Of a stretch of 64,000 nucleotides of DNA, positions 20,393 to 53,382 are shown one piece after another. The first letter of the stretch is position 1, and every line of letters begins with the position of its first letter. The position numbers and the translations under genes were made by a program. This DNA is from Pseudomonas paraeruginosa PA7 (GTDB lineage Bacteria > Pseudomonadota > Gammaproteobacteria > Pseudomonadales > Pseudomonadaceae). Under the pieces are notes generated by a model. It was not told the DNA's origin. It saw only the letters and a list, made by a program, of their open reading frames with translations, and searched no databases. The stretch spans positions 2,050,001 through 2,114,000 of the forward strand of contig NC_009656.1 of NCBI RefSeq assembly GCF_000017205.1, given 5' to 3'.

Positions 20393-21900
<1,508 letters not shown>

Positions 21901-21901
<1 letters not shown>

Positions 21902-40827: not shown

Positions 40828-43485
40828 ATGCGCACCGAGCAACCGAAAGTCATCCACCTCAAGGACTATCAGGCGCCGGACTACCTGATCGACGAGACCC
40901 ACCTGAAATTCGAACTGTTCGAGGACCACAGCCTGGTGCACGCCGAGCTGAAGCTGCGGCGCAACCCCGAGCGCGGCGCCGGCCTGCCGCCGCTGTTGCT
41001 GCATGGCCAGCAACTGGAACTGCTGGCGCTCGAACTGGATGGCCAGGCGCTCGGCGCCGGCGACTACCAGCTGGACGACGAGCAGCTCGGGGTGCAACCG
41101 CTACAGGCCGAGTTCGTCCTCAGGAGCACGGTGCGTATCCATCCGGAAAGCAACACCGCGCTGGAAGGCCTGTACAAGTCCGGCAAGATGTTCTGCACCC
41201 AGTGCGAGGCCGAGGGTTTCCGCAAGATCACCTATTACCTCGACCGCCCCGACGTGATGAGTCGCTTCACCACCACCGTCAGCGCCGAACAGCAGCGCTA
41301 CCCGGTGCTGCTCTCCAACGGCAACCCGGTGGCCAGCGGTTCCGAGGGCAACGGCCGGCACTGGGCGACCTGGGAAGACCCGTTCAGGAAGCCGGCCTAC
41401 CTGTTCGCCCTGGTCGCCGGCGACCTCTGGTGCGTCGAGGACAGCTTCCGCACCATGAGCCAGCGCGACGTGGCGCTGCGCATCTACGTCGAGCCGGAGA
41501 ACATCGACAAGGTCCAGCACGCCATGGACAGCCTGAAGAAGTCGATGCGCTGGGACGAGGAGGTCTACGGTCGCGAGTACGACCTGGACATCTTCATGAT
41601 CGTCGCGGTCAATGACTTCAACATGGGCGCGATGGAGAACAAGGGCCTCAACATCTTCAACTCCAGCTGCGTCCTGGCCCGCGCCGAGACCGCCACCGAC
41701 GCCGCCCACCAGCGGGTCGAGGGAGTGGTGGCGCACGAGTACTTCCACAACTGGTCGGGCAACCGGGTGACCTGCCGCGACTGGTTCCAGCTGTCGCTCA
41801 AGGAAGGCTTCACCGTGTTCCGCGACTCGGAATTCTCCGCCGACATGAACTCGCGCACGGTCAAGCGCGTCGAGGACGTGGCCTTCCTGCGCACCAACCA
41901 GTTCGCCGAGGACGCCGGGCCGATGGCGCATCCGGTGCGCCCCGACTCGTTCATCGAGATTTCCAACTTCTACACCCTGACCGTCTACGAGAAGGGCTCG
42001 GAAGTGGTGCGGATGATCCACACCCTGCTCGGCGCTGAGGGCTTCCGCAAGGGCTCGGACCTGTACTTCCAGCGCCACGACGGCCAGGCGGTGACCTGCG
42101 ACGACTTCGTCAAGGCCATGGAAGACGCCAATGGCGTCGACCTGACCCAGTTCAAGCGCTGGTACAGCCAGTCCGGCACTCCGCGCCTGGCGGTGGAAGG
42201 CGAGTACGACGCCGCCGCCCGCCGCTACACCCTGACGGTGCGTCAGAGCTGCCCGCCGACTCCCGGCCAGCCGAGCAAGGAACCCTTCGTCATCCCGCTG
42301 CAGATGGGCCTGCTCGACGGCCAGGGCAACGAACTCCCGCTGCGCCTGGAAGGCGAGGCCGCGGCCCAGGGCGGCAACCGCGTGCTGGCGGTGACCGAGG
42401 CCGAGCAGCGCTTCGTCTTCGTCGAGGTGCCGGAGCAACCGCTGCCATCGCTGCTGCGCGGTTTCTCCGCGCCGGTGAAACTGAGCTTCCCCTACAGCCG
42501 CGACCAGTTGCTGTTCCTCATGCAGCACGACAGCGACGGCTTCAACCGCTGGGAAGCCGGCCAGCAGCTTTCGGTGCAGGTCCTGCAGGAGCTGATCGGC
42601 CAGCACCAGCGCGGCGAGCGACTGGTACTCGACCCACGCCTGATCGAGGCCTACCGCACCCTCCTGGCGGACGAGGCGCTGGACCAGGCAATGGTCGCCG
42701 AGATGCTCTCGCTGCCCAGCGAGGCCTATCTCACCGAGATCAGCGAAGTCGCCGATGTCGACGCGATCCATGCCGCCCGCGAATTCGCCCGCCAGCGTAT
42801 CGGCGAAGCGCTGTTCGAACCGCTGTGGCAGCGCTACCAGGCCAACCGCGCGATTTCCCGCGACACCGCCTACCTCGCCGAGGCCTCGCACATCGCCCGG
42901 CGCAGCCTGCAGAACATCGCGCTGTCCTACCTGTCGCTGTCGGGCCGGGAGGAAATCCTCGCCGCCTGCCTGGAGCAGTACGAAGGCTGCGACAACATGA
43001 CCGAACGCCTGACCGCCCTGGCGGTGCTGGTCAACTCCGGCTTCGAGGCGGAGAAGGGCAAGGCCCTGGCCATGTTCGCCGACTACTTCAAGGACGACCC
43101 GCTGGTGATGGACCAGTGGTTCAGCGTGCAGGCCGGCTCGCCGCTGCCGGGTGGGCTGGAGCGGGTCCAGGCGCTGATGCAGCACCCGGCGTTCACCCTG
43201 AAGAACCCGAACAAGGTGCGCGCGCTGATCGGCGCGTTCGCCAACCAGAACCTGGTCAACTTCCATCGTCCGGACGGCGCCGGCTATCGCTTCCTCGCCG
43301 ACCAGGTGATCGTGCTCAACGCACTCAACCCGCAGATCGCCTCGCGCCTGCTGGTGCCGCTGACCCGCTGGCGCAAGTACGACCAGGCGCGGCAGGCGCT
43401 GATGCGCGGCGAGCTGGAACGCATCCTGGCCTCCGGCGAATTGTCCAGCGACGTCTACGAAGTGGTGAGCAAGAGCCTGGCCTGA
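40828..43485 (+). CDS. pepN: Aminopeptidase N
   Basis: 885 residues, typical for the bacterial M1 enzyme. It removes N-terminal residues from peptides in the cytosol. The exopeptidase motif GAMEN is at 267-271, and the zinc site HEYFH-x18-E is His303, Glu304, His307 and Glu326. The N-terminal beta domain and the C-terminal helical domain (from about residue 550) are complete. It follows the DUF2797 gene by 18 bases and is closed by a terminator-like hairpin. Confidence 0.97.
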   Translation: MRTEQPKVIHLKDYQAPDYLIDETHLKFELFEDHSLVHAELKLRRNPERGAGLPPLLLHGQQLELLALELDGQALGAGDYQLDDEQLGVQPLQAEFVLRSTVRIHPESNTALEGLYKSGKMFCTQCEAEGFRKITYYLDRPDVMSRFTTTVSAEQQRYPVLLSNGNPVASGSEGNGRHWATWEDPFRKPAYLFALVAGDLWCVEDSFRTMSQRDVALRIYVEPENIDKVQHAMDSLKKSMRWDEEVYGREYDLDIFMIVAVNDFNMGAMENKGLNIFNSSCVLARAETATDAAHQRVEGVVAHEYFHNWSGNRVTCRDWFQLSLKEGFTVFRDSEFSADMNSRTVKRVEDVAFLRTNQFAEDAGPMAHPVRPDSFIEISNFYTLTVYEKGSEVVRMIHTLLGAEGFRKGSDLYFQRHDGQAVTCDDFVKAMEDANGVDLTQFKRWYSQSGTPRLAVEGEYDAAARRYTLTVRQSCPPTPGQPSKEPFVIPLQMGLLDGQGNELPLRLEGEAAAQGGNRVLAVTEAEQRFVFVEVPEQPLPSLLRGFSAPVKLSFPYSRDQLLFLMQHDSDGFNRWEAGQQLSVQVLQELIGQHQRGERLVLDPRLIEAYRTLLADEALDQAMVAEMLSLPSEAYLTEISEVADVDAIHAAREFARQRIGEALFEPLWQRYQANRAISRDTAYLAEASHIARRSLQNIALSYLSLSGREEILAACLEQYEGCDNMTERLTALAVLVNSGFEAEKGKALAMFADYFKDDPLVMDQWFSVQAGSPLPGGLERVQALMQHPAFTLKNPNKVRALIGAFANQNLVNFHRPDGAGYRFLADQVIVLNALNPQIASRLLVPLTRWRKYDQARQALMRGELERILASGELSSDVYEVVSKSLA

Positions 43486-43507
43486 TCCGCCAGCCTCGCC
43501 TGGAAGA

Positions 43508-43541
43508 GGGTGTTACTGGCCACTGGCTGGTAACGCCCTTT
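43508..43541 (+). terminator. Terminator-like hairpin after pepN
   Basis: GGGTGTTAC-TG-GCC (43508-43521) pairs with GGC-TG-GTAACGCCC (43525-43538) with a two-base mismatch and one wobble, followed by TTTG. It lies 22 bases past the pepN stop. Its near-dyad GTTAC...GTAAC could alternatively be a protein site. Confidence 0.5.
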
Positions 43542-43637
43542 GTTACTTCTGGGAATCGCTTCACTGTTTTGCATTGATGGAGTCCGCCTAATCGCCTTTC
43601 GCGAATCCCCGGGCGCAGGCTCTGCAAAGGGACTTTT

Positions 43638-43670
43638 CGCGCCATCGGCGAATTTCGCCTGGCGCGTTTT
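43638..43670 (+). terminator. Second hairpin with T-run upstream of the DUF1302 operon
   Basis: CGCGCCA (43638-43644) pairs with TGGCGCG (43660-43666); inside, GGCGAA-T-TTCGCC forms a second stem; TTTT follows at 43667-43670. It is too far (150 bases) from pepN to be a simple pepN terminator and may end a small RNA. Confidence 0.5.
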
Positions 43671-43771
43671 GTCGGACACCTCCGGTTTTCTGGTCAGTGA
43701 ATGAACAGTCATCCGGCAGGAAGTCCTGTTTTTTCGCAATCCATTGAATTGCCTGGAGGATTCCGTTGTAT

Positions 43772-43787
43772 TGGCATCCCGGTTGCA
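43772..43787 (+). promoter_or_regulatory. Sigma-54 (RpoN) promoter of the DUF1302 operon
   Basis: TGGCATCCCGGTTGCA fits the -24/-12 consensus TGGCAC-N5-TTGCA with the GG and GC dinucleotides correctly spaced and only one or two deviations. A transcript would start near 43799, leaving a leader of about 130 bases before the ATG at 43931. Such promoters need an enhancer-binding activator; no such gene is adjacent. Confidence 0.7.
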
Positions 43788-43930
43788 CTGCCTCGTCGCG
43801 CGCTTCCCTTCCGTCGACGCGAGGCCGGTGATGCCGCGATCACCCATAACAAGGCCGCAGAGAAACGGCCGAACGGCGAACCGCCCGCAGTGGCGGCGCC
43901 CAACGCATGACCACATGGAGTGAGTTCCCG

Positions 43931-45895
43931 ATGTACATCCCCAACCACCAGCCCCGGCTGCGCTGCGCGCCGGCCCGGGCCGGCTTCGCCTTCGCCGGGC
44001 TGCTGCCGCTGCTGGGCGGCCAGGCCCAGGCCGTCGAGTTCAGCTTCCTCGACAACGAAGTGTCCGGTTCGCTCGATACCACCCTGTCCTACGGCACCCT
44101 GTGGCGGGTGCAGGGCCAGGACAAGAGCAACAACGACATCAACACCAACGACGGCAACCGCAACTTCGATACCGGCCTGGTTTCCGAGGTCTACAAGATC
44201 ACCTCGGACCTGGAGGCGACCTGGCGCAACTATGGCGTGTTCATCCGTGGCACGGCGTTCTATGACACCCAGATCATGGACAAGCGCAACGACTACTACA
44301 GCCACAACACCCCGTCGCAGCCCAGCCAGAGCCATCCCCACGACGACCGCTTCACCAGCCAGACCCGCGACATCGCCGGGCACAAGGCGGAAATCCTCGA
44401 CGCCTACGTCTACGGCAGCTGGGACATCGGCAACATGCCGCTGAGCGCGCGCTTCGGCCGCCAGGTGTTCAACTGGGGCGAGGGCATCTTCTACCGCGGC
44501 GGGGTCAACACCACCAACCCGGTGGACGCCGCCAAGTACCGCCTGCCCGGCTCCGAGCTCAAGGAAGTGCTGATGCCGGTGGAGGCGCTGAGCTTCAACA
44601 TCGGCCTGACCGACAACCTGTCGATGGAAACCTTCTACCAGTGGAACTGGAAGGAGACCCGCCTCGACCCGGTCGGCACCTTCTTCTCCGAGACCGACCT
44701 GTTCGCCGACGGCGGCAACACCGGCTACAGCGACTTCACCGGCACCGCGCTGGACACCCCGGTGCCCGGCTTCGGCAACGTCATCGGCCTGTACCAGGCG
44801 CTGGGCAACAACCCGCTGCTCAGCGGCGCGCTGAAGAACACCGGCCTCTATGCCAATGGCGTGACCCCGGCCTACGGCAACGTGATGAAGGTGTCGTCCA
44901 TCGGCAAGGACATCAACGCGCGCAACGACGGCCAGTTCGGCGTGGCCTTCCGCTACATCGCCGAGGAGCTGAACAGCACCGAGTTCGGCTTCTACTTCGT
45001 CAACTACCACTCCAAGGAACCGACCCTGTACGCCGACATCGGCGACTACGCCGGCGCCGACCTGGCGGCGTTGGCCAACACCCTGCGGCCGATCGCCGGC
45101 AACCTCGCCGAGGCCCTGGCCAGCGGCCTGGTGACCGCCGACGTGATGGGCAACATCAACGCGCGCCGCGAGTTCGCCGAAGACATCCGCATGTACGGCT
45201 TCAGCTTCAACACCACGGTGGGCGACGCCTCGGTGTTCGGCGAGCTGGCCTACCGGCCGAACCTGCCGATCGGCATCGCCGCCACCAACGACCTGATCGG
45301 CGACCTCGCCCACGGCGCGGCGCAGGCCGCCAATGGCGGGCAGATCAACGTCGGCGGGCAGATGGTCGGCCTCGGCGGGCAGATCCACAACTACGAGCGG
45401 GTCGAGGCGTTCAATACCTCCCTGGGGACCATCTACAACTTCGGCCCGTCGCTGAGCTTCGACTCGCTGACCGGCGTCGCCGAGCTGGCCTCGGAACACC
45501 TGCGCGGCAGCAGCCTGAAGTACACCGCCTACGACGGCAGCACCCGCTACTACGCCGGGCGCGGCAACAGCTCCTATGTCTCCGGCGGCGACCGTGGCGA
45601 CCAGGTGAACCGCAACGCCTACGGCTACACCCTGCTGCTCAGCGGCACCTGGAACGATGTGTTCGCCGGGGTCAACGTGTCGCCCTACGTGGTCTACAAG
45701 GACGATTTCGAAGGTAACTCCTACCAGACCGGCAACTTCATCGAAGGCCGCAAGGCCTACACCCTGGGGGTCAAGGCCACCTACCTGAACAGTCTGGAAG
45801 GCGAGCTGCAGTACACCGAGTTCTATGGCGGCGGACAGAACAACAATATCCGCGACCGCGACAACATCGGCCTGACCGTCAAGTATTCCTTCTGA
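43931..45895 (+). CDS. DUF1302 outer-membrane barrel-like protein
   Basis: 654 residues. Signal peptide of about 34 residues (FAGLLPLLGGQAQA/VEF). The mature protein is rich in Tyr, Asn, Gly and alternating hydrophobic strands, ends YSF, and fits DUF1302, thought to be an outer-membrane beta barrel. GGAGTGAG before the ATG at 43931 decides that start over an ATG eight codons earlier. From my recollection of PAO1 order this is the locus tagged PA3082 and named gbt (glycine betaine transmethylase); nothing in the sequence resembles a methyltransferase. It is the first gene of a probable four-gene envelope operon. Confidence 0.88.
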   Translation: MYIPNHQPRLRCAPARAGFAFAGLLPLLGGQAQAVEFSFLDNEVSGSLDTTLSYGTLWRVQGQDKSNNDINTNDGNRNFDTGLVSEVYKITSDLEATWRNYGVFIRGTAFYDTQIMDKRNDYYSHNTPSQPSQSHPHDDRFTSQTRDIAGHKAEILDAYVYGSWDIGNMPLSARFGRQVFNWGEGIFYRGGVNTTNPVDAAKYRLPGSELKEVLMPVEALSFNIGLTDNLSMETFYQWNWKETRLDPVGTFFSETDLFADGGNTGYSDFTGTALDTPVPGFGNVIGLYQALGNNPLLSGALKNTGLYANGVTPAYGNVMKVSSIGKDINARNDGQFGVAFRYIAEELNSTEFGFYFVNYHSKEPTLYADIGDYAGADLAALANTLRPIAGNLAEALASGLVTADVMGNINARREFAEDIRMYGFSFNTTVGDASVFGELAYRPNLPIGIAATNDLIGDLAHGAAQAANGGQINVGGQMVGLGGQIHNYERVEAFNTSLGTIYNFGPSLSFDSLTGVAELASEHLRGSSLKYTAYDGSTRYYAGRGNSSYVSGGDRGDQVNRNAYGYTLLLSGTWNDVFAGVNVSPYVVYKDDFEGNSYQTGNFIEGRKAYTLGVKATYLNSLEGELQYTEFYGGGQNNNIRDRDNIGLTVKYSF

Positions 45896-45953
45896 CCGAA
45901 CCGATAGCGACACGGGCGCCGCGAGCGCCCGGCACCTCACACGGAGAACCCTC

Positions 45954-47321
45954 ATGTTGAACAAGCACCTGCTGATCGGCGCCTCCCTGGCGCTGGCCCT
46001 GGGCAGCGGTGGCGCGCTGGCCGGCGTTTCCGCCGGCGAGGCGGCGCAGTTGAAGTCGAGCCTCACCCCGCTGGGCGCGGAGAAGGCCGGCAACGCCGCC
46101 GGCAGCATTCCCGCCTGGACCGGCGGTATCACCCAGGCGCCGGCCGGCTACAAGCCGGGCCAGCACCATCCGGATCCGTTCGCCGCGGACAAGCCGCTGT
46201 TCACCATCGACAAGACCAACCTGGAACAACACAAGGCGCACCTGACCCCGGGCCAGCTGGCGCTGTTCAAGACCTATCCGGACAGCTTCCGGATGCCGGT
46301 CTACCCCAGCCGCCGTTCCGGCTCGGCGCCGCAGTGGCTGTACGACAACACCTTCGCCAATGCCACCAGCGCCAAGCTGCTGGACGGCGGCAACGGGTTC
46401 GCCGACGCCTATGGCGGGGTGCCGTTCCCGATCCCGAAGAGCGGCGTGGAGGCGCTGTGGAACCACGTTGCCCGCTACCGCGGCACTTATGTCGTGCGCC
46501 GCGCCTCGGAAGTCGCGGTGCAGCGCAACGGCAGCTATTCGCTGGTGACCTCGCAGCAGGAAGCGCTGTTCAAGTACTACCTCAAGGGCGGCAGCTTCGC
46601 CGACCTGAACAACGTGATGTTCTACTACCTGTCGTTCACCAAGAGTCCGGCGCGCCTGGCCGGTGGCGCGGTGCTGGTGCACGAGACCCTCGACCAGGTC
46701 AAGGAGCCGCGCCAGGCCTGGGGCTACAACGCCGGCCAGCGTCGTGTGCGGCGCGCGCCGAACCTCGCCTACGACACGCCGATCGCCGCCGCCGACGGCC
46801 TGCGCACGGCCGACGACACCGACATGTTCAACGGCGCGCCGGACCGCTACGACTGGAAGCTGCTGGGCAAGAAGGAAATCTACATCCCCTACAACAACTA
46901 CAAGGTCAGCAGTCCCGAGGTGAAGTACGACGAGCTGCTCAAGCCCGGGCACCTCGATCCGCAGTACACCCGCTACGAACTGCACCGCGTGTGGGTGGTG
47001 GAAGGCACCCTGAAGCCGGGCGCGCGGCACATCTACTCCAAGCGCACCCTGTATCTCGACGAGGACAGCTGGAGCGCGGCGGTGGTCGACCAGTACGACG
47101 GTCGCGGCGAACTCTGGCGGGTGTCCATGGCCTACCTGAAGAACTTCTACGACCTGCCCTACACCTGGAGCGCGCTGGACGTGTTCCATGACCTGCAGGC
47201 GCGTCGCTACCACGTGCAGAACCTGGACAACGAGGAGCCGGGCACCATCGACTTCACCCAGGCGGTTCCGGACGATTCCTACTTCAAGCCCTCGGCGCTG
47301 CGCCGCCGCGGCACCCGCTGA
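45954..47321 (+). CDS. DUF1329 periplasmic LolA-like protein
   Basis: 455 residues with a clear signal peptide (MLNKHLLIGASLALALGSGGALAG). The rest is DUF1329, which as I recall is classed with the LolA/LolB/RseB lipid-binding fold. Visible conserved stretches are KAGNAAGSIPAWTGGI near residue 42, GYKPGQHHPDPFA, and RRAPNLAYDTP. Family genes almost always sit next to DUF1302 and an MMPL transporter, as here. It probably carries a hydrophobic ligand across the periplasm. CGGAGAACC precedes the ATG, 58 bases after the DUF1302 gene. A GC-rich hairpin (GGCGCC at 47336 and 47368) follows the gene. Confidence 0.87.
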   Translation: MLNKHLLIGASLALALGSGGALAGVSAGEAAQLKSSLTPLGAEKAGNAAGSIPAWTGGITQAPAGYKPGQHHPDPFAADKPLFTIDKTNLEQHKAHLTPGQLALFKTYPDSFRMPVYPSRRSGSAPQWLYDNTFANATSAKLLDGGNGFADAYGGVPFPIPKSGVEALWNHVARYRGTYVVRRASEVAVQRNGSYSLVTSQQEALFKYYLKGGSFADLNNVMFYYLSFTKSPARLAGGAVLVHETLDQVKEPRQAWGYNAGQRRVRRAPNLAYDTPIAAADGLRTADDTDMFNGAPDRYDWKLLGKKEIYIPYNNYKVSSPEVKYDELLKPGHLDPQYTRYELHRVWVVEGTLKPGARHIYSKRTLYLDEDSWSAAVVDQYDGRGELWRVSMAYLKNFYDLPYTWSALDVFHDLQARRYHVQNLDNEEPGTIDFTQAVPDDSYFKPSALRRRGTR

Positions 47322-47426
47322 TCGCTCCGCTCGCCGGCGCCGACCGCTTCCCTCCGGGGAGGAGGGCGGCGCCGATCCCCCGTTACAGACGGCTTACACG
47401 CTTAACAAAAGATAACGTGGCTTCAA

Positions 47427-47456
47427 TTGTCTCCGTCGCCAAAGGCTGGCTATATA
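47427..47456 (+). promoter_or_regulatory. Possible internal promoter before the YCF48 gene
   Basis: TTGTCT (47427-47432), 18 bases, TATATA (47451-47456) in an unusually AT-rich 179-base spacer. It would allow the YCF48 and MMPL genes to be expressed apart from the sigma-54 promoter. Confidence 0.4.
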
Positions 47457-47500
47457 ACGCTCACCACGAACCACTAATAACAACAACGGGGACGGTATCC

Positions 47501-48598
47501 ATGCGTGAGCCCATGACGTGGCGCACTTCGCTCGGCCAATCCGCAAACGCTTCGCGGCATCCGGCCATTCCTTCCAGATCGCCCCTGGCCAGCAGGGCCC
47601 TGTCGTTTCTCGGGGCGCTTTCTCTCCTGACCTTCGCCGCCACCCCGGTCCTGGCCGAGTCGGCGCCAACCGCCGCGCCGCCGCAGTTCGCCGTGGAATC
47701 GCCGAAGGCCGCCAGCAGCCTGCTGCTCAGCGTCGCCCATGCCGGCAAGCGGCTGGTCGCGGTCGGCGACCGCGGGCATATCCTGCTCTCCGACGACGAT
47801 GGCAAGACCTGGAGCCAGGCCAAGGTGCCGACCCGCCAGTTGCTCACCTCGGTGTTCTTCGTCAACGAGCGCAAGGGCTGGGCGGTCGGGCACGATGCGC
47901 AGATCCTCGTCAGCGACGATGCCGGCAGCACCTGGACCAGGCAGTTCGAGGATCTCGGCCGCGAATCGCCGCTGCTGGACATCTGGTTCGCCGACGAACG
48001 GCACGGCCTGGCCGTCGGCGCCTATGGCGCGCTGCTGGAAACCCGCGACGGCGGCCAGCGCTGGGAAGACGTCAGCGAACGCCTGGACAACGAGGACCAG
48101 TTCCACCTCAATGCCATCGCCGCGGTCAAGGACAGCGGCCTGCTGGTGGTCGGCGAGGCCGGCATTCTGTTCCGCTCGAAGGACTGGGGCGCCACCTGGG
48201 AAAAGCTCGAAGGCCCCTACGAGGGTTCGCTGTTCGGCGCCATCGGTACCGCCGACGTCGGCGGCGTGCTGGTCTACGGCCTGCGCGGGCACCTGTTCCG
48301 TTCCGCCGATTTCGGTGACAGCTGGGAGGCGATCCCGCTGAAGGCCGCTTCCGGCGACCTGGAATTCGGTCTCTCCGACGGCGCGCTGCTGGCGGACGGC
48401 CGGATCGTCGTGGTCGGCCACGGCGGCAGCGTCCTCGAAAGCACCGACGGCGGGCGCAGCTTCAGCGTCTTCAACCGTCCCGACCGGCTGTCCCTGGCCG
48501 GCGTCAGCGCCACCGGCGACGGCCACCTGGTCCTGGTCGGCCAGGGCGGCGTGCACCTCGCTGCGGCGAACGGTGCCGCGCTCGAACAACAACAATAA
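47501..48598 (+). CDS. YCF48/BNR-type beta-propeller, exported
   Basis: 365 residues from ATG 47501 (GGGGA before it); a GTG 28 codons upstream is rejected because it precedes a non-conserved tail and the promoter-like AT-rich stretch. Signal peptide ends FAATPVLA/ESAP. Six BNR-like blades follow, each with G-x-x-G-x-(I/L)-x-x-(S/T)-x-D-x-G-x-x-(W/F): GDRGHILLSDDDGKTW, GHDAQILVSDDAGSTW, GAYGALLETRDGGQRW, GEAGILFRSKDWGATW, GLRGHLFRSADFGDSW, GHGGSVLESTDGGRSF. The fold is that of Ycf48/HCF136, assembly factors of photosystem II; in this non-photosynthetic organism it probably scaffolds the transporter. The MMPL gene starts 12 bases later. Confidence 0.88.
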   Translation: MREPMTWRTSLGQSANASRHPAIPSRSPLASRALSFLGALSLLTFAATPVLAESAPTAAPPQFAVESPKAASSLLLSVAHAGKRLVAVGDRGHILLSDDDGKTWSQAKVPTRQLLTSVFFVNERKGWAVGHDAQILVSDDAGSTWTRQFEDLGRESPLLDIWFADERHGLAVGAYGALLETRDGGQRWEDVSERLDNEDQFHLNAIAAVKDSGLLVVGEAGILFRSKDWGATWEKLEGPYEGSLFGAIGTADVGGVLVYGLRGHLFRSADFGDSWEAIPLKAASGDLEFGLSDGALLADGRIVVVGHGGSVLESTDGGRSFSVFNRPDRLSLAGVSATGDGHLVLVGQGGVHLAAANGAALEQQQ

Positions 48599-48610
48599 GG
48601 CGGGGGTCGC

Positions 48611-50992
48611 ATGAGTTCCATGAACCAGCATCAGCAAAACAAGGCGAGCCTGCTCGAACGCCTGATCTTCAACAACCGGCCGGTGGTGATCTTCCTTTGC
48701 CTGCTGGTCAGCGTCTTTTTGTTCTACCAGGCCACCCAGGTGCGACCGTCGACCAGCTTCGAGAAGATGATCCCGCTGGAGCATCCGTTCATCCAGAAGA
48801 TGCTCGAGCACCGCAACGACCTGGCCAACCTCGGTAACACCGTGCGCATCTCGGTGGAGGCGGTCAACGGCGACATCTTCACCAAGGAGTACATGGAGAC
48901 GCTGCGGCAGATCCATGACGAGGTGTTCTACATCCCCGGGGTCGACCGTTCCGGCCTGAAGTCGCTGTGGAGCCCTAGCGTGCGCTGGACCGAAGTGACC
49001 GAGGAAGGCTTCGCCGGCGGCGAGGTGATCCCGCAGACCTACGACGGTTCGCCGCGGGCGCTGGAGGAGCTGCGCAACAACGTGCTCAAGTCCGGGCAGA
49101 TCGGCCGCCTGGTGGCGAACAACTTCAAGTCGAGCATCGTCGACGTGCCGCTGCTGGAGATGTATCCGAACCCGAAGAACCAGAGCGAGCTGATCAAGCT
49201 CGACTACCGGCAGTTCTCCCATGAGCTGGAAGAGAAGATCCGCGACAAGTACCAGTTGCAGAACCCCAACGTGAAGGTGCACATCGTCGGCTTCGCGAAG
49301 AAGGTCGGCGACCTGATCGACGGGCTGGTGATGGTGGTCGGCTTCTTCGGTATCTGCCTGCTGATCACCCTGGTCCTGCTGTACTGGTTCACCAGGTGCA
49401 TCCGCAGCACCATCGCCGTGCTGATCACCACCCTGGTGGCGGTGCTCTGGCAGCTCGGCCTGCTCAACCTGGTCGGTTTCGGCCTGGATCCCTATTCGAT
49501 GCTGGTGCCGTTCCTGATTTTCGCCATCGGCATCTCCCACGGCGTGCAGAAGATCAACGGCATCGCCTTGCAGTCCAGCGGCGCCGACAATGCGCTGATG
49601 GCGGCGCGGCTGACCTTCCGCCAGCTGTTCCTGCCCGGGATGATCGCGATCCTCGCCGACGCCGTGGGCTTCATCACCCTGCTGGTGATCGATATCGGGG
49701 TGATCCGCGAGTTGGCCATCGGCGCCTCGATCGGCGTGGCGGTGATCGTCTTCACCAACCTGATCCTGCTGCCCGTGGCGATCTCCTACATCGGCATCAG
49801 CAAGAAGGCCGTGCAGCGCAGCAAGGAAGACGCGGTGCGCGAGCACCCGTTCTGGCGCCTGCTGTCGAATTTCGCCAGCCCGAAGGTGGCGCCGGTGTCC
49901 ATCGTCATCGCCCTGCTGATGCTCGGCGGCGGACTCTGGTACGGCAAGCACCTGAAGATCGGCGACCTCGACCAGGGGGCGCCGGAGCTGCGTCCCGACT
50001 CGCGCTACAACCTCGACAACGACTTCATCATCCGCAACTACTCGACCAGTTCGGACGTGCTGGTGGTGATGGTCAAGACCACCCCGGAAGGCTGTTCCAG
50101 CCACCAGGCGCTGGCGGCCATGGACGAACTGGCCTGGAAGCTGGAGAACACCGAGGGCGTGCAGTCGGCGATCTCGATGGTCACCGTGTCCAAGCAGGTG
50201 ATCAAGGGGATGAACGAGGGCAACCTGAAGTGGGAGACCCTGTCGCGCAATCAGGACGTGCTGAACAACTCCATCGCCCGTGCCGACGGCCTCTACAACA
50301 CCGACTGCTCGCTGGCGCCGCTGCTGGTGTTCCTCAACGACCACAAGGCCGAGACCCTCGACCGGGCGGTGGCGGCGGTACAGGCCTTCGCCGCGGAGAA
50401 CGACAGGGAGGACCTGCAATTCCAGCTGGCCGCCGGCAACGCCGGGATCGAGGCCGCGACCAACGAGGTGATCAAGCAGTCCGAGCTGATCATCCTGGTG
50501 CTGGTGTACATCTGCGTGGCGGCCATGTGCATGATCACCTTCCGCTCCTTCGCCGCGACCCTCTGCATCGTCCTGCCGCTGATCCTCACCTCGGTTCTCG
50601 GCAACGCGCTGATGGCGGCGCTGGGCATCGGCGTGAAGGTCGCGACCCTGCCGGTGATCGCCCTCGGCGTCGGCATCGGGGTGGACTATGGGATCTACAT
50701 CTACACCCGCCTGGAGTCCTTCCTGCGCATGGGCCTGCCGTTGCAGGAGGCCTACTACGAGACCCTGCGCTCCACCGGCAAGGCGGTGCTGTTCACCGGC
50801 CTGTGCCTGGCGATCGGCGTGGCCACCTGGATCTTCTCGGCGATCAAGTTCCAGGCCGACATGGGCCTGATGCTGACCTTCATGCTGCTCTGGAACATGT
50901 TCGGCGCCCTCTGGCTGCTGCCGGCCCTGGCGCGCTTCCTGATCAACCCGGCCAAGTTGCAGGCCAGGAAGGCCTCGGTGTTCGCCCACTGA
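48611..50992 (+). CDS. MMPL/RND-superfamily exporter
   Basis: 793 residues. Predicted 12 membrane segments: one near 24-41 (VVIFLCLLVSVFLFYQA), five near 237-400, then a second periplasmic domain, one near 430-450 and five in the C-terminal third. This is the two-repeat RND layout of the MMPL/HAE3/HpnN group, which export lipids or hydrophobic compounds without a classical adaptor. In the C-terminal repeat the proton-relay motif GVDYGIY is present (Asp692-Tyr693), but the matching N-terminal position reads GISHGVQ (Ser309-His310), so Asp is missing there. GCGGGGGTCGC precedes the ATG. It is the last gene of the operon, followed by a strong terminator. Confidence 0.9.
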   Translation: MSSMNQHQQNKASLLERLIFNNRPVVIFLCLLVSVFLFYQATQVRPSTSFEKMIPLEHPFIQKMLEHRNDLANLGNTVRISVEAVNGDIFTKEYMETLRQIHDEVFYIPGVDRSGLKSLWSPSVRWTEVTEEGFAGGEVIPQTYDGSPRALEELRNNVLKSGQIGRLVANNFKSSIVDVPLLEMYPNPKNQSELIKLDYRQFSHELEEKIRDKYQLQNPNVKVHIVGFAKKVGDLIDGLVMVVGFFGICLLITLVLLYWFTRCIRSTIAVLITTLVAVLWQLGLLNLVGFGLDPYSMLVPFLIFAIGISHGVQKINGIALQSSGADNALMAARLTFRQLFLPGMIAILADAVGFITLLVIDIGVIRELAIGASIGVAVIVFTNLILLPVAISYIGISKKAVQRSKEDAVREHPFWRLLSNFASPKVAPVSIVIALLMLGGGLWYGKHLKIGDLDQGAPELRPDSRYNLDNDFIIRNYSTSSDVLVVMVKTTPEGCSSHQALAAMDELAWKLENTEGVQSAISMVTVSKQVIKGMNEGNLKWETLSRNQDVLNNSIARADGLYNTDCSLAPLLVFLNDHKAETLDRAVAAVQAFAAENDREDLQFQLAAGNAGIEAATNEVIKQSELIILVLVYICVAAMCMITFRSFAATLCIVLPLILTSVLGNALMAALGIGVKVATLPVIALGVGIGVDYGIYIYTRLESFLRMGLPLQEAYYETLRSTGKAVLFTGLCLAIGVATWIFSAIKFQADMGLMLTFMLLWNMFGALWLLPALARFLINPAKLQARKASVFAH

Positions 50993-51013
50993 GTCGCGTC
51001 GAGCCTCGCCAAG

Positions 51014-51039
51014 ACCGCGGCCCAGGCCGCGGTTTTTTT
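51014..51039 (+). terminator. Terminator after the MMPL gene
   Basis: ACCGCGGCC (51014-51022) pairs with GGCCGCGGT (51025-51033), then TTTTTT. It ends the DUF1302-MMPL operon before the convergent cprS. Confidence 0.9.
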
Positions 51040-51062
51040 GCGCGGAGGAAGGCCGCCGCGCT

Positions 51063-52358
51063 TCAGTCCGGCGTGGCGGGAAACAGCAACTCGCAGCGGA
51101 AGCGTCGCTCGTCGCTGGTGTAGTGCAGGCGCCAGCCGCTCTTCTGGCACAGGCGCTGGACCAGGTCGAGGCCCAGGCCGTAGCCGAAGGCCATCGAGTC
51201 CGCCGTGCTCTGCGCCGCGCCGATGGGATTGCTGATCCGCAGGCTGCGGTCGCGCACGACGATTTCCACGACGCCCTCGTCGCTGTACTGCAGGGCGTTG
51301 CGCAGGAGATTGCCGATGATGATCCGCGCGCGGGTCTGCGGCAGGCTGTGCGGCTCCACGTCGAGCTGGAAGCTCAGGCCGCGGCGCTGGCTGAGCGTCT
51401 GCTGTTCCTCCAGCAGGTCCTCGAGCAGGCGGCCGACCTCGATGTGGCCGTCGTCGCGCAGCTCGCCACCCTCGCGGCTGAGCCAGAGCAGGGTCTCGGT
51501 CATCTGCCGCATGTCCAGGGCCGAGCGGCGGATGCGTTGCAGGGCGTGGGGGGAGGGCGGGTGGCCGGGCTGGTCGAGCAGTTCCAGGTTCATGCCGATC
51601 ACCGCCAGCGGGGTCCGCAGCTCATGGCTGGCGTAGCGCAGGAAGCGCTCCTCGCGCTGGCTGAAGTCCTTGATCCGGGTCACGCTGTTCCACAGGGTTT
51701 CCGCCAGGACGTTGAGCTCGCGGTAGTGGAAGCGCGGCCGCTGGCTGTCCGGGGCGAGGTCGTCGAGGCCCATCGACCAGCGTGTCAGCTTGCGCAGCGG
51801 GGCAACGATGAACCAGACCAGCAGGCCGACGGCCGCCAGCGAGGGCAGCACCACCAGCAGGGTGACGATCCAGGTCTGCCTGATGCGGGCATCGATGATG
51901 GCGTCGGACAGCGGCGTGTCGATGCTGCCGGCGTCGTCGTTGTCGTAGAGGTAGAGCGTCTTGCCATCGGCCAGCGGCTGGCGGACCACCACATAGGCGT
52001 CATCGCTGGGCGCGTCTTCGTCTTCTTCCTCGTCATCGTCGTCCCAGTTGCCGAGCAGTTGCATGGCGCCGATGTTCCTGTAGGGGGGGCTATCGAGCAT
52101 GTCCCGGAGCTTCGGCGGCAGGCCCGCGGTGCCGACGCTGCCCTTGAAGTAATAGCTGTCCGGCGCCGGCGTCGCCGGGTCCTCCTGGTAGCGCTGGGCG
52201 AAGTACAGCCCTTCCTCTTCCATCATCATGCTGAGCAGGTAGAGCGCGCCAGTCTCGCCGTAGTCGCCGAGCATGCGGGTATAGACCAGCAGCACCCCGG
52301 CGAGGATCAGGGTGACGCTGCCGCCGACGATGGGGATCAGGCTCAGGCCGCGTTTCAT
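51063..52358 (-). CDS. cprS: Sensor histidine kinase CprS
   Basis: 431 residues. It is an inner-membrane kinase that responds to cationic antimicrobial peptides and, through CprR, switches on the arn lipid A modification genes. Two membrane segments (about 8-28 and 150-172) bracket a periplasmic sensor domain containing a striking acidic run, Asp106 to Asp120 (12 of 15 acidic). The HAMP-like linker is followed by the H-box YASHELRTP (His245), N-box (GNLLRNALQYS) and G-box (GYGLGLDLV). Its ATG overlaps the cprR stop. Identification rests on domain layout and the neighbouring gene order. Confidence 0.88.
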   Translation of the reverse strand: MKRGLSLIPIVGGSVTLILAGVLLVYTRMLGDYGETGALYLLSMMMEEEGLYFAQRYQEDPATPAPDSYYFKGSVGTAGLPPKLRDMLDSPPYRNIGAMQLLGNWDDDDEEEDEDAPSDDAYVVVRQPLADGKTLYLYDNDDAGSIDTPLSDAIIDARIRQTWIVTLLVVLPSLAAVGLLVWFIVAPLRKLTRWSMGLDDLAPDSQRPRFHYRELNVLAETLWNSVTRIKDFSQREERFLRYASHELRTPLAVIGMNLELLDQPGHPPSPHALQRIRRSALDMRQMTETLLWLSREGGELRDDGHIEVGRLLEDLLEEQQTLSQRRGLSFQLDVEPHSLPQTRARIIIGNLLRNALQYSDEGVVEIVVRDRSLRISNPIGAAQSTADSMAFGYGLGLDLVQRLCQKSGWRLHYTSDERRFRCELLFPATPD

Positions 52359-53026
52359 TTGCGCTCCAGCTGGAAGCCGACACTGTGCAGGGTGTGGATC
52401 AGGGGAGTGGCGAAGCCCTTGTCGACGGTGCTGCGCAGGTGGTGCATGTGCACGTTCAGGGTGTTGCTTTCCGGCGGCTCGTCGCCCCACACGCTGCGCC
52501 CCAGCTGTTCGCGGGTGACCAGCGCCGGGCTGGCGCGCATCAGGCACTCGAGGATCTTCCAGGCGGTGGGGGACAACGCCAGTGGCGTGCCGCCACGACT
52601 GACCTGGCGGCTGTCCAGGTCCATCACCAGATCGTCGACCTGCAGGCGCTGGGCCTGGCCGCTGCGACGCCGGCTGAGGGCCTGCAGGCGGACCAGCAGT
52701 TCCGGCAGTTCGAAGGGCTTGAGCAGGTAGTCGTCGGCGCCGGCGTCGAAGCCGTCGAGCTTGTCCTGCAGGGTGTCCAGGGCTGTGAGCATCAGCACCG
52801 GGGTCTGCAGGCCCGCCTCGCGCAACTGGCGGCAGACCTGCCGGCCGTTGATCCGCGGCAGCATGATGTCCAGCAGGATCACGTCGTAGCGGTTGTCGCG
52901 GGCGAGGTTGAGGCCGGCCTGGCCGTCGCGGGCGTGGTCGCAGACCACTCCGGCGGCCTCGAGGTAGTCGATGATGGTGCCGGCGAGATCGAAGTTGTCT
53001 TCGACGACGAGTACGTGGATGTGCAT
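52355..53026 (-). CDS. cprR: Response regulator CprR (OmpR family)
   Basis: 223 residues. The receiver domain has the acid pocket VVEDN (about 8-12), phospho-acceptor Asp53 (LLDIMLP) and Lys near 103 (LLKPFE). A winged-helix OmpR/PhoB DNA-binding domain follows (NTLNVHMHHLRSTVDK). The ATG at 53026 gives MHIHVLVVEDN; longer upstream frame is rejected. First gene of the minus-strand cprRS operon; 356 bases separate it from the divergent autotransporter gene. Confidence 0.9.
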   Translation of the reverse strand: MHIHVLVVEDNFDLAGTIIDYLEAAGVVCDHARDGQAGLNLARDNRYDVILLDIMLPRINGRQVCRQLREAGLQTPVLMLTALDTLQDKLDGFDAGADDYLLKPFELPELLVRLQALSRRRSGQAQRLQVDDLVMDLDSRQVSRGGTPLALSPTAWKILECLMRASPALVTREQLGRSVWGDEPPESNTLNVHMHHLRSTVDKGFATPLIHTLHSVGFQLERK

Positions 53027-53382
53027 GGCCTGGGTCGCGTCGCGGATGGGGCGGGAGAATGCGCTGGGGAAGCGTCGGGGTGCCATGTCGGCCGGGTGCC
53101 CGGCGCTTCCGTCGCTCGAACGGCGATGTTCGTCGATCGACGATAGCGCTGTCCAGCCGATCGAACGGTTCACGCTGTCGCTGTGAAACGGTGCCGGTTC
53201 TTGCCGCCGCGAAGCCCTCGCGGCCATCTGCCGGACGCGGCCTTAAGCCTTTGTTAACCGCCTCGCGACTAGCGTGCAGCCCTGCTCGGGACGTTCCGCA
53301 CGTGGACCGCAAAGGCGTGGCGCTCCCGAGCGGTCGCCGCAATGGGTGCGGTGGCCATTCGTTGAGCGGGGGTAGCTTTGCC
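53027..53382. other. 356-base divergent region between cprR and the autotransporter
   Basis: No gene supported. It contains a TTAA direct repeat (53242-53258, listed separately), a CGTCGATCGACG palindrome near 53131, and an inverted repeat close to cprR (GAAGCG... near 53069 with CGCTTC near 53104). It must carry promoters for both directions, but no clear -35/-10 pair stands out. Confidence 0.6.
53242..53258. promoter_or_regulatory. TTAA direct repeat, OmpR/PmrA-type operator candidate
   Basis: CTTAAG (53242-53247), 5 bases, GTTAAC (53253-53258): two TTAA half-sites exactly 11 bases apart, the layout of PmrA boxes (TTAA-N7-TTAA) used by the related peptide-responsive regulators. It lies 125 bases before the autotransporter ATG and 216 bases from cprR. 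Confidence 0.45.

What the first reader, a model, noticed from the sequence alone, without database searches (positions are those of the whole stretch)
43772..50992. Four-gene envelope transport system (DUF1302, DUF1329, YCF48 propeller, MMPL exporter) under a sigma-54 promoter
Seen: four consecutive plus-strand genes, three with signal peptides and one with a 12-segment RND layout, opened by a near-consensus -24/-12 promoter and closed by a strong terminator. Known: DUF1329 belongs, as I recall, with the LolA/LolB lipid-carrier fold; MMPL proteins export lipids or hydrophobic compounds; DUF1302 is barrel-like; YCF48 propellers are assembly factors. Inference: the set is one trans-envelope pathway for a hydrophobic ligand, with the exporter in the inner membrane, DUF1329 as periplasmic shuttle, DUF1302 in the outer membrane and the propeller as a scaffold. 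This fits none of the standard tripartite pumps.
Basis: partly seen in the sequence, partly recalled or inferred. Interest (0 to 1): 0.75.

Follow-up and report, generated by a model that had tools for sequence, protein, structure and literature searches.

The report
Modular envelope pump for oily molecules
These four neighbouring genes form a known but little-studied kind of bacterial machine that carries greasy molecules across the cell envelope, and the comparison of genomes suggests it is really two parts: one motor pair kept by every relative examined in the genus, and one exchangeable pore-and-carrier pair with its own switch.

Summary
The four genes are real: an outer-membrane barrel (DUF1302), a LolA-fold carrier (DUF1329), a YCF48 propeller and an HAE3/MMPL exporter, in a genome of the P. 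aeruginosa kind. The kind is in print: AmeABCD of Castellaniella (PMC6394551), and P. putida PP_0765/0766 with PP_2018/2019, needed for Tween 20 (PMC10866462). 'One operon under sigma-54' is not supported. The sigma-54 site is real (18 of 18 loci with this DUF1302, window included) but belongs to the barrel-carrier pair, which in 16 of 16 other complete genus loci ends in its own terminator. Propeller and exporter have a second conserved promoter region and stand downstream of pepN in 25 of 25 genus genomes, 6 of which lack both other genes there. The own genome has one such exporter but four barrels and five carriers. Best reading: a proton-driven motor pair serving several separately regulated barrel-carrier pairs for lipids or hydrocarbons. 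Direction is unresolved: catabolic context suggests uptake, Ame work export. New member of a known kind; the shared motor is the interesting part.

The parts
43694..43711 (+). conserved element TCAGTGAATGAACAGTCA, candidate activator (enhancer) site, about 60 nt upstream of the -24 box
   Evidence: conserved in the alignment of 18 loci, window included; the only match without mismatch to TCANTGNNTGANCAGTCA in the own genome
43771..43787 (+). sigma-54 type -24/-12 promoter of the DUF1302-DUF1329 pair
   Evidence: 11 of 13 consensus; 18 of 18 orthologous promoters score 11 or 12; found in 6 of 6 named pepN loci with DUF1302 and in 0 of 36 named pepN loci without it
43931..45895 (+). DUF1302 gene, 654 aa, outer-membrane beta-barrel, C-terminal Phe; PA3082 by gene order
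   Evidence: PF06980 E 9.9e-163 for the ORF from 43907; barrel-like model, pLDDT 61.7; porins and AlgE among best matches; start corrected
45954..47321 (+). DUF1329 gene, 455 aa, periplasmic LolA-fold carrier; PA3081 by gene order
47402..47456 (+). second promoter region: TTAACAAAAGATAACG (47402-47417), then TTGTCT (47427-47432), 18 nt, TATATA (47451-47456)
   Evidence: 16-mer exact in 25 of 25 genus genomes, at most 1 mismatch in 46 of 48 named loci L154-L201
47476..47489 (+). AATAACAACAACGG just before the propeller start, AANAANAA motif of the Hfq/Crc kind
   Evidence: an AANAANAA motif near the start in 25 of 25 genomes; AAnAAnAA named as Crc motif in a passage of PMC5715377
47501..48598 (+). 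YCF48-like propeller gene, 365 aa; PA3080 by gene order
   Evidence: PF14870 E 4.5e-28; Ycf48 structures E 1.3e-22, both with the ORF from 47417; next to the exporter in 80 of 80 named loci
48611..50992 (+). HAE3/MMPL RND exporter gene, 793 aa; invariant S309-H310 and D692-Y693; PA3079 by gene order
   Evidence: PF03176 E 2.5e-32; TIGR00921 HAE3, below cut-off; alignment of 12; only match of its kind in the genome at E 1e-40
51013..51039 (+). intrinsic terminator after the exporter
   Evidence: stem GACCGCGGCC-CA-GGCCGCGGTT then T run
43505..43541 (+). hairpin after pepN, terminator of the upstream gene, not part of the system
   Evidence: counterparts in relatives, also in 6 of 7 loci without the sigma-54 site

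Best explanation
An AmeABCD-type trans-envelope conduit for hydrophobic (lipid or hydrocarbon-like) compounds, built from two modules. Module 1 is the motor: a proton-driven HAE3/MMPL protein in the inner membrane with its YCF48 propeller in the periplasm. Module 2 is the interchangeable pair: a LolA-fold carrier (DUF1329) that ferries the ligand through the periplasm and an outer-membrane barrel (DUF1302). Here one pair sits directly in front of the motor, driven by its own sigma-54 promoter, while the motor has its own promoter and perhaps catabolite control. The single motor probably also serves the other barrel-carrier pairs elsewhere in the genome. Shown: gene content, the fold of DUF1329 and (roughly) DUF1302, promoter conservation, co-occurrence, copy numbers, separability. 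Inferred: physical complex, proton coupling, sharing of the motor, ligand class, and direction (I lean to uptake for catabolism, about 55:45).
For: Strong DUF1329 matches (100 bits or more; highest outside the set 38.9) and exporter matches (E 1e-40 or less) occupy exactly the same 17 of 114 genomes (about 1 in 7e19 for random sets, ignoring kinship; the 100-bit line was drawn at the gap after seeing the scores). DUF1302 is strong in 16 of those 17. Propeller next to exporter in 80 of 80 named loci, but DUF1329 in the fetched flank in only 31 and DUF1302 in 13. Motor downstream of pepN in 25 of 25 genus genomes; all four genes in 17, neither barrel nor carrier there in 6. Own genome: 5 DUF1329, 4 DUF1302, 1 propeller, 1 exporter of this kind; DUF1329 outnumbers the exporter in 25 of 25 genus genomes, 307 to at most 95. 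In P. putida a DUF1302/DUF1329 pair and a distant periplasmic protein and transporter share the Tween 20 phenotype (PMC10866462, section 12). Own paralogous pairs: one next to an acyl-CoA ligase, with a thiolase near; one within about 5 kb of an SDR and an enoyl-CoA hydratase gene. PA3080 rises 10.3-fold together with lipases lipA and lipC and glycerol genes in a rubB mutant (PMC12431658).
Against: The AmeABCD study favours export: the deletion strain tolerates limonene less and takes up slightly more Nile Red with CCCP, though efflux kinetics were almost identical. No complex, transport or proton coupling was tested here. The published carrier contacts are called weak. The DUF1302 model is low-confidence. 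Most genus genomes have 2 to 7 exporter matches, so sharing of one motor is suggested only where there is a single copy, and there the other pairs might work without any motor. At Pfam's own cut-off DUF1329 is in 48 and DUF1302 in 32 of 114 genomes, so the exact match holds only for strong members. No substrate is known for the window's pair.
Confidence: 0.6

Rival explanations
1. A dedicated four-part exporter encoded as one sigma-54 operon, for Ame, the AmeABCD authors picture it: the motor pumps toxic hydrophobic compounds out through this carrier and this barrel only.
For: AmeABCD deletion lowers monoterpene tolerance and slightly raises Nile Red uptake. All four genes are adjacent in 17 of 25 genus genomes, and the window itself shows no detectable terminator between the two halves, so read-through is possible.
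Against: Terminator between the halves in 16 of 16 other complete genus loci and a second conserved promoter region in 25 of 25; motor without pair at the same place in 6 of 25; P. putida phenotype links unlinked genes.
Confidence: 0.25
2. The DUF1302-DUF1329 pair works alone (passive barrel plus carrier, FadL-like uptake), and the YCF48-MMPL pair has a separate housekeeping job in envelope lipid balance; co-occurrence reflects lifestyle only.
For: Separate promoter regions; the motor is core in the genus sample while this pair comes and goes. Marinobacter AupA/AupB shows a different outer/inner membrane pair for alkane uptake; no RND protein is mentioned in the text searched (start of abstract, passages).
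Against: Identical sets for strong members in 114 genomes; shared Tween 20 phenotype and a weak predicted PP_0766-PP_2019 contact; in 11 named pepN loci, Marinobacter and others, DUF1329 sits beside the motor without DUF1302.
Confidence: 0.12

Closest known systems
AmeABCD, Castellaniella defragrans (PMC6394551)
   Same: Same four families in the same order (DUF1302, DUF1329, COG4447 photosystem II assembly-factor type, HAE3 RND); 605, 451, 316 and 787 aa against 654, 455, 365 and 793 here.
   Different: Ame genes lie in a monoterpene island and are induced by monoterpenes; here they lie beside pepN with a sigma-54 site and a second promoter region. Ame sequences were not fetched or aligned here.
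PP_0765/PP_0766 with PP_2018/PP_2019, Pseudomonas putida (PMC10866462)
   Same: DUF1302, DUF1329, a periplasmic protein and an RND-type transporter with the same Tween 20 requirement; predicted contacts carrier-barrel and carrier-transporter (weak) and PP_2018-PP_2019 (strong).
   Different: The two halves are far apart in the P. putida numbering; in the window they are neighbours. A P. putida locus here (L159) has pepN, propeller and exporter only. That PP_2018 is the YCF48 protein is my inference.
Nanopod-associated DUF1302/DUF1329, Delftia (PMC3110197) and ORM2a 'Nanopod' cluster (PMC13101534)
   Same: DUF1329 with DUF1302, or with YCF48 and MMPL, tied to aromatic hydrocarbon use; DUF1329 deletion is cited as impairing growth on phenanthrene.
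   Different: Other bacteria; 21% identity reported between those two DUF1329 proteins; nanopods not indicated here. Only passages of both papers seen.
LolA/LolB lipoprotein carriers; HpnN, BstA and MmpL lipid transporters
   Different: The HpnN and BstA matches are far below the curated cut-offs; DUF1329 has about 160 residues before the matched part; no LolCDE-type ABC motor among these genes.

Membership tests
AmeABCD-type tetrapartite HAE3 system | DUF1302, DUF1329, YCF48-type and HAE3 RND genes together in this order | tested here: met
   (HAE3 model best hit but below its cut-off); published description of Ame proteins
AmeABCD-type tetrapartite HAE3 system | 12 transmembrane segments with two large periplasmic loops in the RND protein | tested here: met
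   hydropathy gives about 12 segments with gaps near 43-238 and 445-625 (merged by eye)
AmeABCD-type tetrapartite HAE3 system | expression as one unit | tested here: inconclusive
   second promoter region and terminators in relatives; no terminator found in the window; no RNA data
AmeABCD-type tetrapartite HAE3 system | needed for growth on or tolerance of hydrophobic compounds | not testable with these tools
   literature only, for relatives
AmeABCD-type tetrapartite HAE3 system | sequence homology to the Ame proteins themselves | not tested
   Ame sequences not fetched
LolA-fold carriers | LolA fold | tested here: met
Sigma-54 promoter | GG-N10-GC with TGGCAC-N5-TTGCW surroundings, conserved among relatives | tested here: met
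CbrB-activated promoter | TGTTAC-N12-14-GTAACA upstream, tied to the sigma-54 promoter | tested here: inconclusive
   F1 and R1 (one variant base in the window) in 18 of 18, but they form the pepN terminator stem, and such hairpins remain in 6 of 7 loci without the sigma-54 site
Tripartite HAE1 pumps (MexAB-OprM type) | membrane fusion protein and TolC/OprM-type channel among the four proteins | tested here: not met
   none of the four proteins matches such families in Pfam or NCBIfam at E 0.001

The most novel reading that the evidence does not exclude
The YCF48-MMPL pair is a shared, catabolite-controlled proton-driven hub for hydrophobic substrates, comparable in logic to TonB-ExbBD for metal uptake: one motor energises many interchangeable, separately regulated DUF1329 carrier and DUF1302 barrel pairs, each with its own ligand and its own activator (sigma-54 here, MalT-type LuxR regulators beside two paralogous pairs).
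Probability: 0.42. Interest if true: 0.8.

Novelty: new member of a known kind. Interest (0 to 1): 0.5.

Why it matters
How greasy nutrients and toxins cross the periplasm of Gram-negative bacteria is an open question. If one motor serves many pore-carrier pairs, a single gene deletion in a laboratory strain would reveal the whole substrate range, and fitness data for many DUF1302/DUF1329 genes would become interpretable together. The P. aeruginosa gene called gbt (glycine betaine transmethylase, PA3082) is by gene order this barrel, so that name is probably wrong.

Tried and rejected
CbrB control: the hairpin upstream carries TGTTAC-N11-13-GTAAC(A/G) in 18 of 18 loci, close to the published F1/R1 CbrB half-sites. 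Rejected as evidence, because it is the pepN terminator stem and such hairpins stay in 6 of 7 genus loci without the sigma-54 site (L126-L131).

Regulon search with the element at 43694: only the window site matched without mismatch; the other 9 sites had 2 mismatches, with 5 hits for the reversed control pattern. No regulon found and the activator stays unknown.

In-frame TGA in paralogous exporters: read in 3 of them, it is the natural stop. Not recoding.

RNA families: no Rfam match up to E 0.1 in 43300-51300. AupA/AupB: no DUF or RND named in the text searched. The other 18 MMPL matches of the own genome score at most 51.1 bits against 98.2 and lie in frames mostly over 1000 aa (one of 636 aa), so I did not count them as HAE3.

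Mistakes corrected: loci from the genome search are not oriented, so mixed strands; redone. In some searches I translated the propeller from 47503, out of frame; the propeller identities there are void, the distances are shifted, and one search gives the right values (65-72% in the 24 other genus genomes).

Full report
What is in the window. The four genes are there and each matches its family above the cut-off: DUF1302 (E 9.9e-163), DUF1329 (2.7e-165), PSII_BNR/YCF48 (4.5e-28), MMPL (2.5e-32); the exporter's best NCBIfam model is the HAE3 subfamily, below its cut-off. Upstream lies pepN, downstream on the other strand a sensor kinase and response regulator, then a subtilase autotransporter. 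The genome is one contig of 6,588,339 bases and the exporter is 99% identical to a P. aeruginosa protein; the size fits, from recall, the outlier strain PA7 (P. paraeruginosa). PA3083 is listed as an aminopeptidase, PA3078/PA3077 as CprS/CprR and PA3082 as gbt. Four genes fit between, so DUF1302, DUF1329, YCF48 and MMPL are PA3082, PA3081, PA3080 and PA3079 by gene order; this was not checked by sequence.

Promoters and terminators. The -24/-12 site at 43771 scores 11 of 13; the 64-kb window has 3 sites of that score and none higher. In a genus sample of 25 genomes (own genome included), all 18 loci with the orthologous DUF1302 beside pepN (17 complete sets plus G005, which lacks DUF1329) carry the site at the matching place, score 11 or 12. 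It was not found in 7 of 7 genus loci without DUF1302, in 36 of 36 named pepN loci without DUF1302, or in 5 of 5 plus-strand DUF1302 loci outside Pseudomonadaceae that have upstream sequence (L218 is cut there and L202 lies on the other strand), nor upstream of the three other pairs of the own genome (score 10 or more). So the site goes with this barrel-carrier pair. A second conserved block, TCAGTGAATGANCAGTCA, lies upstream of it and is a candidate activator site; no activator was identified.

The propeller has its own upstream region. TTAACAAAAGATAACG is exact in 25 of 25 genus genomes, followed in most by TTGTC(A/T), 17-18 bases and TATATA (L132 departs in the second half). It has at most 1 mismatch in 46 of 48 named loci L154-L201, but 3 or more in all 32 of L202-L233. 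An AANAANAA motif stands near the start in 25 of 25; a passage names that motif for Crc. In 16 of 16 other genus loci with all four genes an intrinsic terminator separates DUF1329 from this region; in the window, and in G011 (DUF1329 without DUF1302), I found none. So in most relatives these are two transcription units by sequence; in the window read-through from the first into the second remains possible. No RNA data were available.

Modules. In the 25 genus genomes the propeller and exporter sit downstream of pepN in 25, with both DUF1302 and DUF1329 in 17, DUF1302 alone in 1, DUF1329 alone in 1 and neither in 6 (tblastn with the window's proteins at E 1e-8; propeller values corrected). In 11 pepN loci, Marinobacter among them, the order is pepN, DUF1329, YCF48, MMPL without DUF1302. 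P. putida 31800 (L159) has pepN, YCF48 and MMPL only.

Co-occurrence. In 114 genomes of the class (drawn evenly; the 17 positive ones are of 17 families), exporter matches at E 1e-40 or less are in 17, and DUF1329 matches of 100 bits or more are in the same 17; the best DUF1329 score outside is 38.9 bits. The exporter threshold was set before the DUF1329 search; the 100-bit line was drawn at the gap afterwards. At the looser thresholds DUF1329 is in 51 genomes (48 over Pfam's cut-off), the extra ones being weak, mostly partial matches in LolA-sized frames. The exporter search scored at most 9 candidates per genome. DUF1302 is strong (337 bits or more) in 16 of the 17; in G032 (75% complete) it is a 39-bit fragment; 32 genomes have some match, and the best outside the set is 108.7 bits. 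The propeller is clear (E 3.3e-48 or better) in 15 of the 17, weaker in G032 (2.5e-19), not found at E 1e-8 in G062 (81% complete); 4 genomes outside have weak matches.

Copy number. The own genome has 5 DUF1329, 4 DUF1302, one propeller and one exporter of this kind (one match with the whole protein at E 1e-40). The other pairs: L024, next to an acyl-CoA ligase and a MalT-type LuxR regulator, with a thiolase near; L025, next to a MalT-type regulator, with an SDR and an enoyl-CoA hydratase gene within about 5 kb; L026, behind a GH1 glycosidase; L027 has a lone DUF1329. Window and L026 pairs are close duplicates (69% and 72% identity); otherwise carriers (43-70%) differ less than barrels (37-61%). 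DUF1329 outnumbers exporters in 25 of 25 genus genomes, 307 to at most 95 matches, some of the latter pieces of one gene or distant relatives.

Literature seen. PMC6394551 (abstract, passages, first part of results, conclusion): AmeABCD, same set, read as an exporter. PMC10866462 (one section): P. putida genes and predicted contacts. PMC12431658 (first part of one results section): PA3080 up 10.3-fold with lipA, lipC, glpF and glpD. PMC2714965 (passages): a PA3080 insertion strain was attenuated in worms, adhered less and swarmed poorly. PMC13101534 and PMC3110197 (passages): DUF1329 clusters in hydrocarbon users. PMC7603352 (passages): a DUF1302 and a DUF1329 protein and a fatty acid-CoA ligase with nearby locus tags are all lower in one comparison, fitting L024. 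In this open library, the listings showed no paper treating PA3079-PA3082 as one transport system; most of those papers were not opened, so that is not proof of absence.

Judgement. The set is an Ame-type system, so the kind is known. What is added here is the two-unit structure, the retained motor, the exact match of strong members across genomes and the excess of pairs over motors. These favour a shared motor, but physical coupling, ligand and direction remain inferred. Against uptake stands the Ame work; for it stand the catabolic neighbours of paralogous pairs, the Tween 20 requirement and the co-induction with lipases.

Noticed in passing
window 47402-47417; L154-L201: TTAACAAAAGATAACG upstream of the propeller-exporter pair is nearly invariant across the Pseudomonadaceae loci fetched; its binding protein is unknown to me.
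   Followed up: partly
window 43505-43541; L126-L131, L133, L138-L147, L149-L153: pepN terminator hairpin GGTGTTACC...GGTAACACC keeps its outer stem sequence unusually well in relatives and resembles CbrB half-sites.
   Followed up: partly
class sample G076:C95, G125:C8, G126:C11, G121:C72, G058:C1: A second, distant kind of pair: a LolA-like protein of about 270-310 aa near a weak DUF1302-like barrel, in genomes without the exporter studied here.
   Followed up: no
L026:8277-13222 (own genome): A close duplicate of the window's DUF1302-DUF1329 pair sits behind a GH1 glycosidase, which hints at a glycosylated hydrophobic ligand.
   Followed up: partly
L027:7921-9267 (own genome): A lone DUF1329 gene with no barrel partner between a methyltransferase (PF02390) gene and a HemN-like gene.
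   Followed up: no
window 43931-45895: The name gbt (glycine betaine transmethylase) given to PA3082 does not fit a DUF1302 outer-membrane barrel.
   Followed up: partly
window 51063-53227 (-) and 53059-56301 (+): Sensor kinase and regulator that by gene order are CprS/CprR (antimicrobial peptide sensing), then a subtilase autotransporter only distantly like EprS (171 bits against a cut-off of 1700).
   Followed up: no
window 20393-21901: Type II secretion ATPase (GspE type) about 22 kb upstream, at the head of a run of plus-strand genes that looks like a type II secretion cluster.
   Followed up: no
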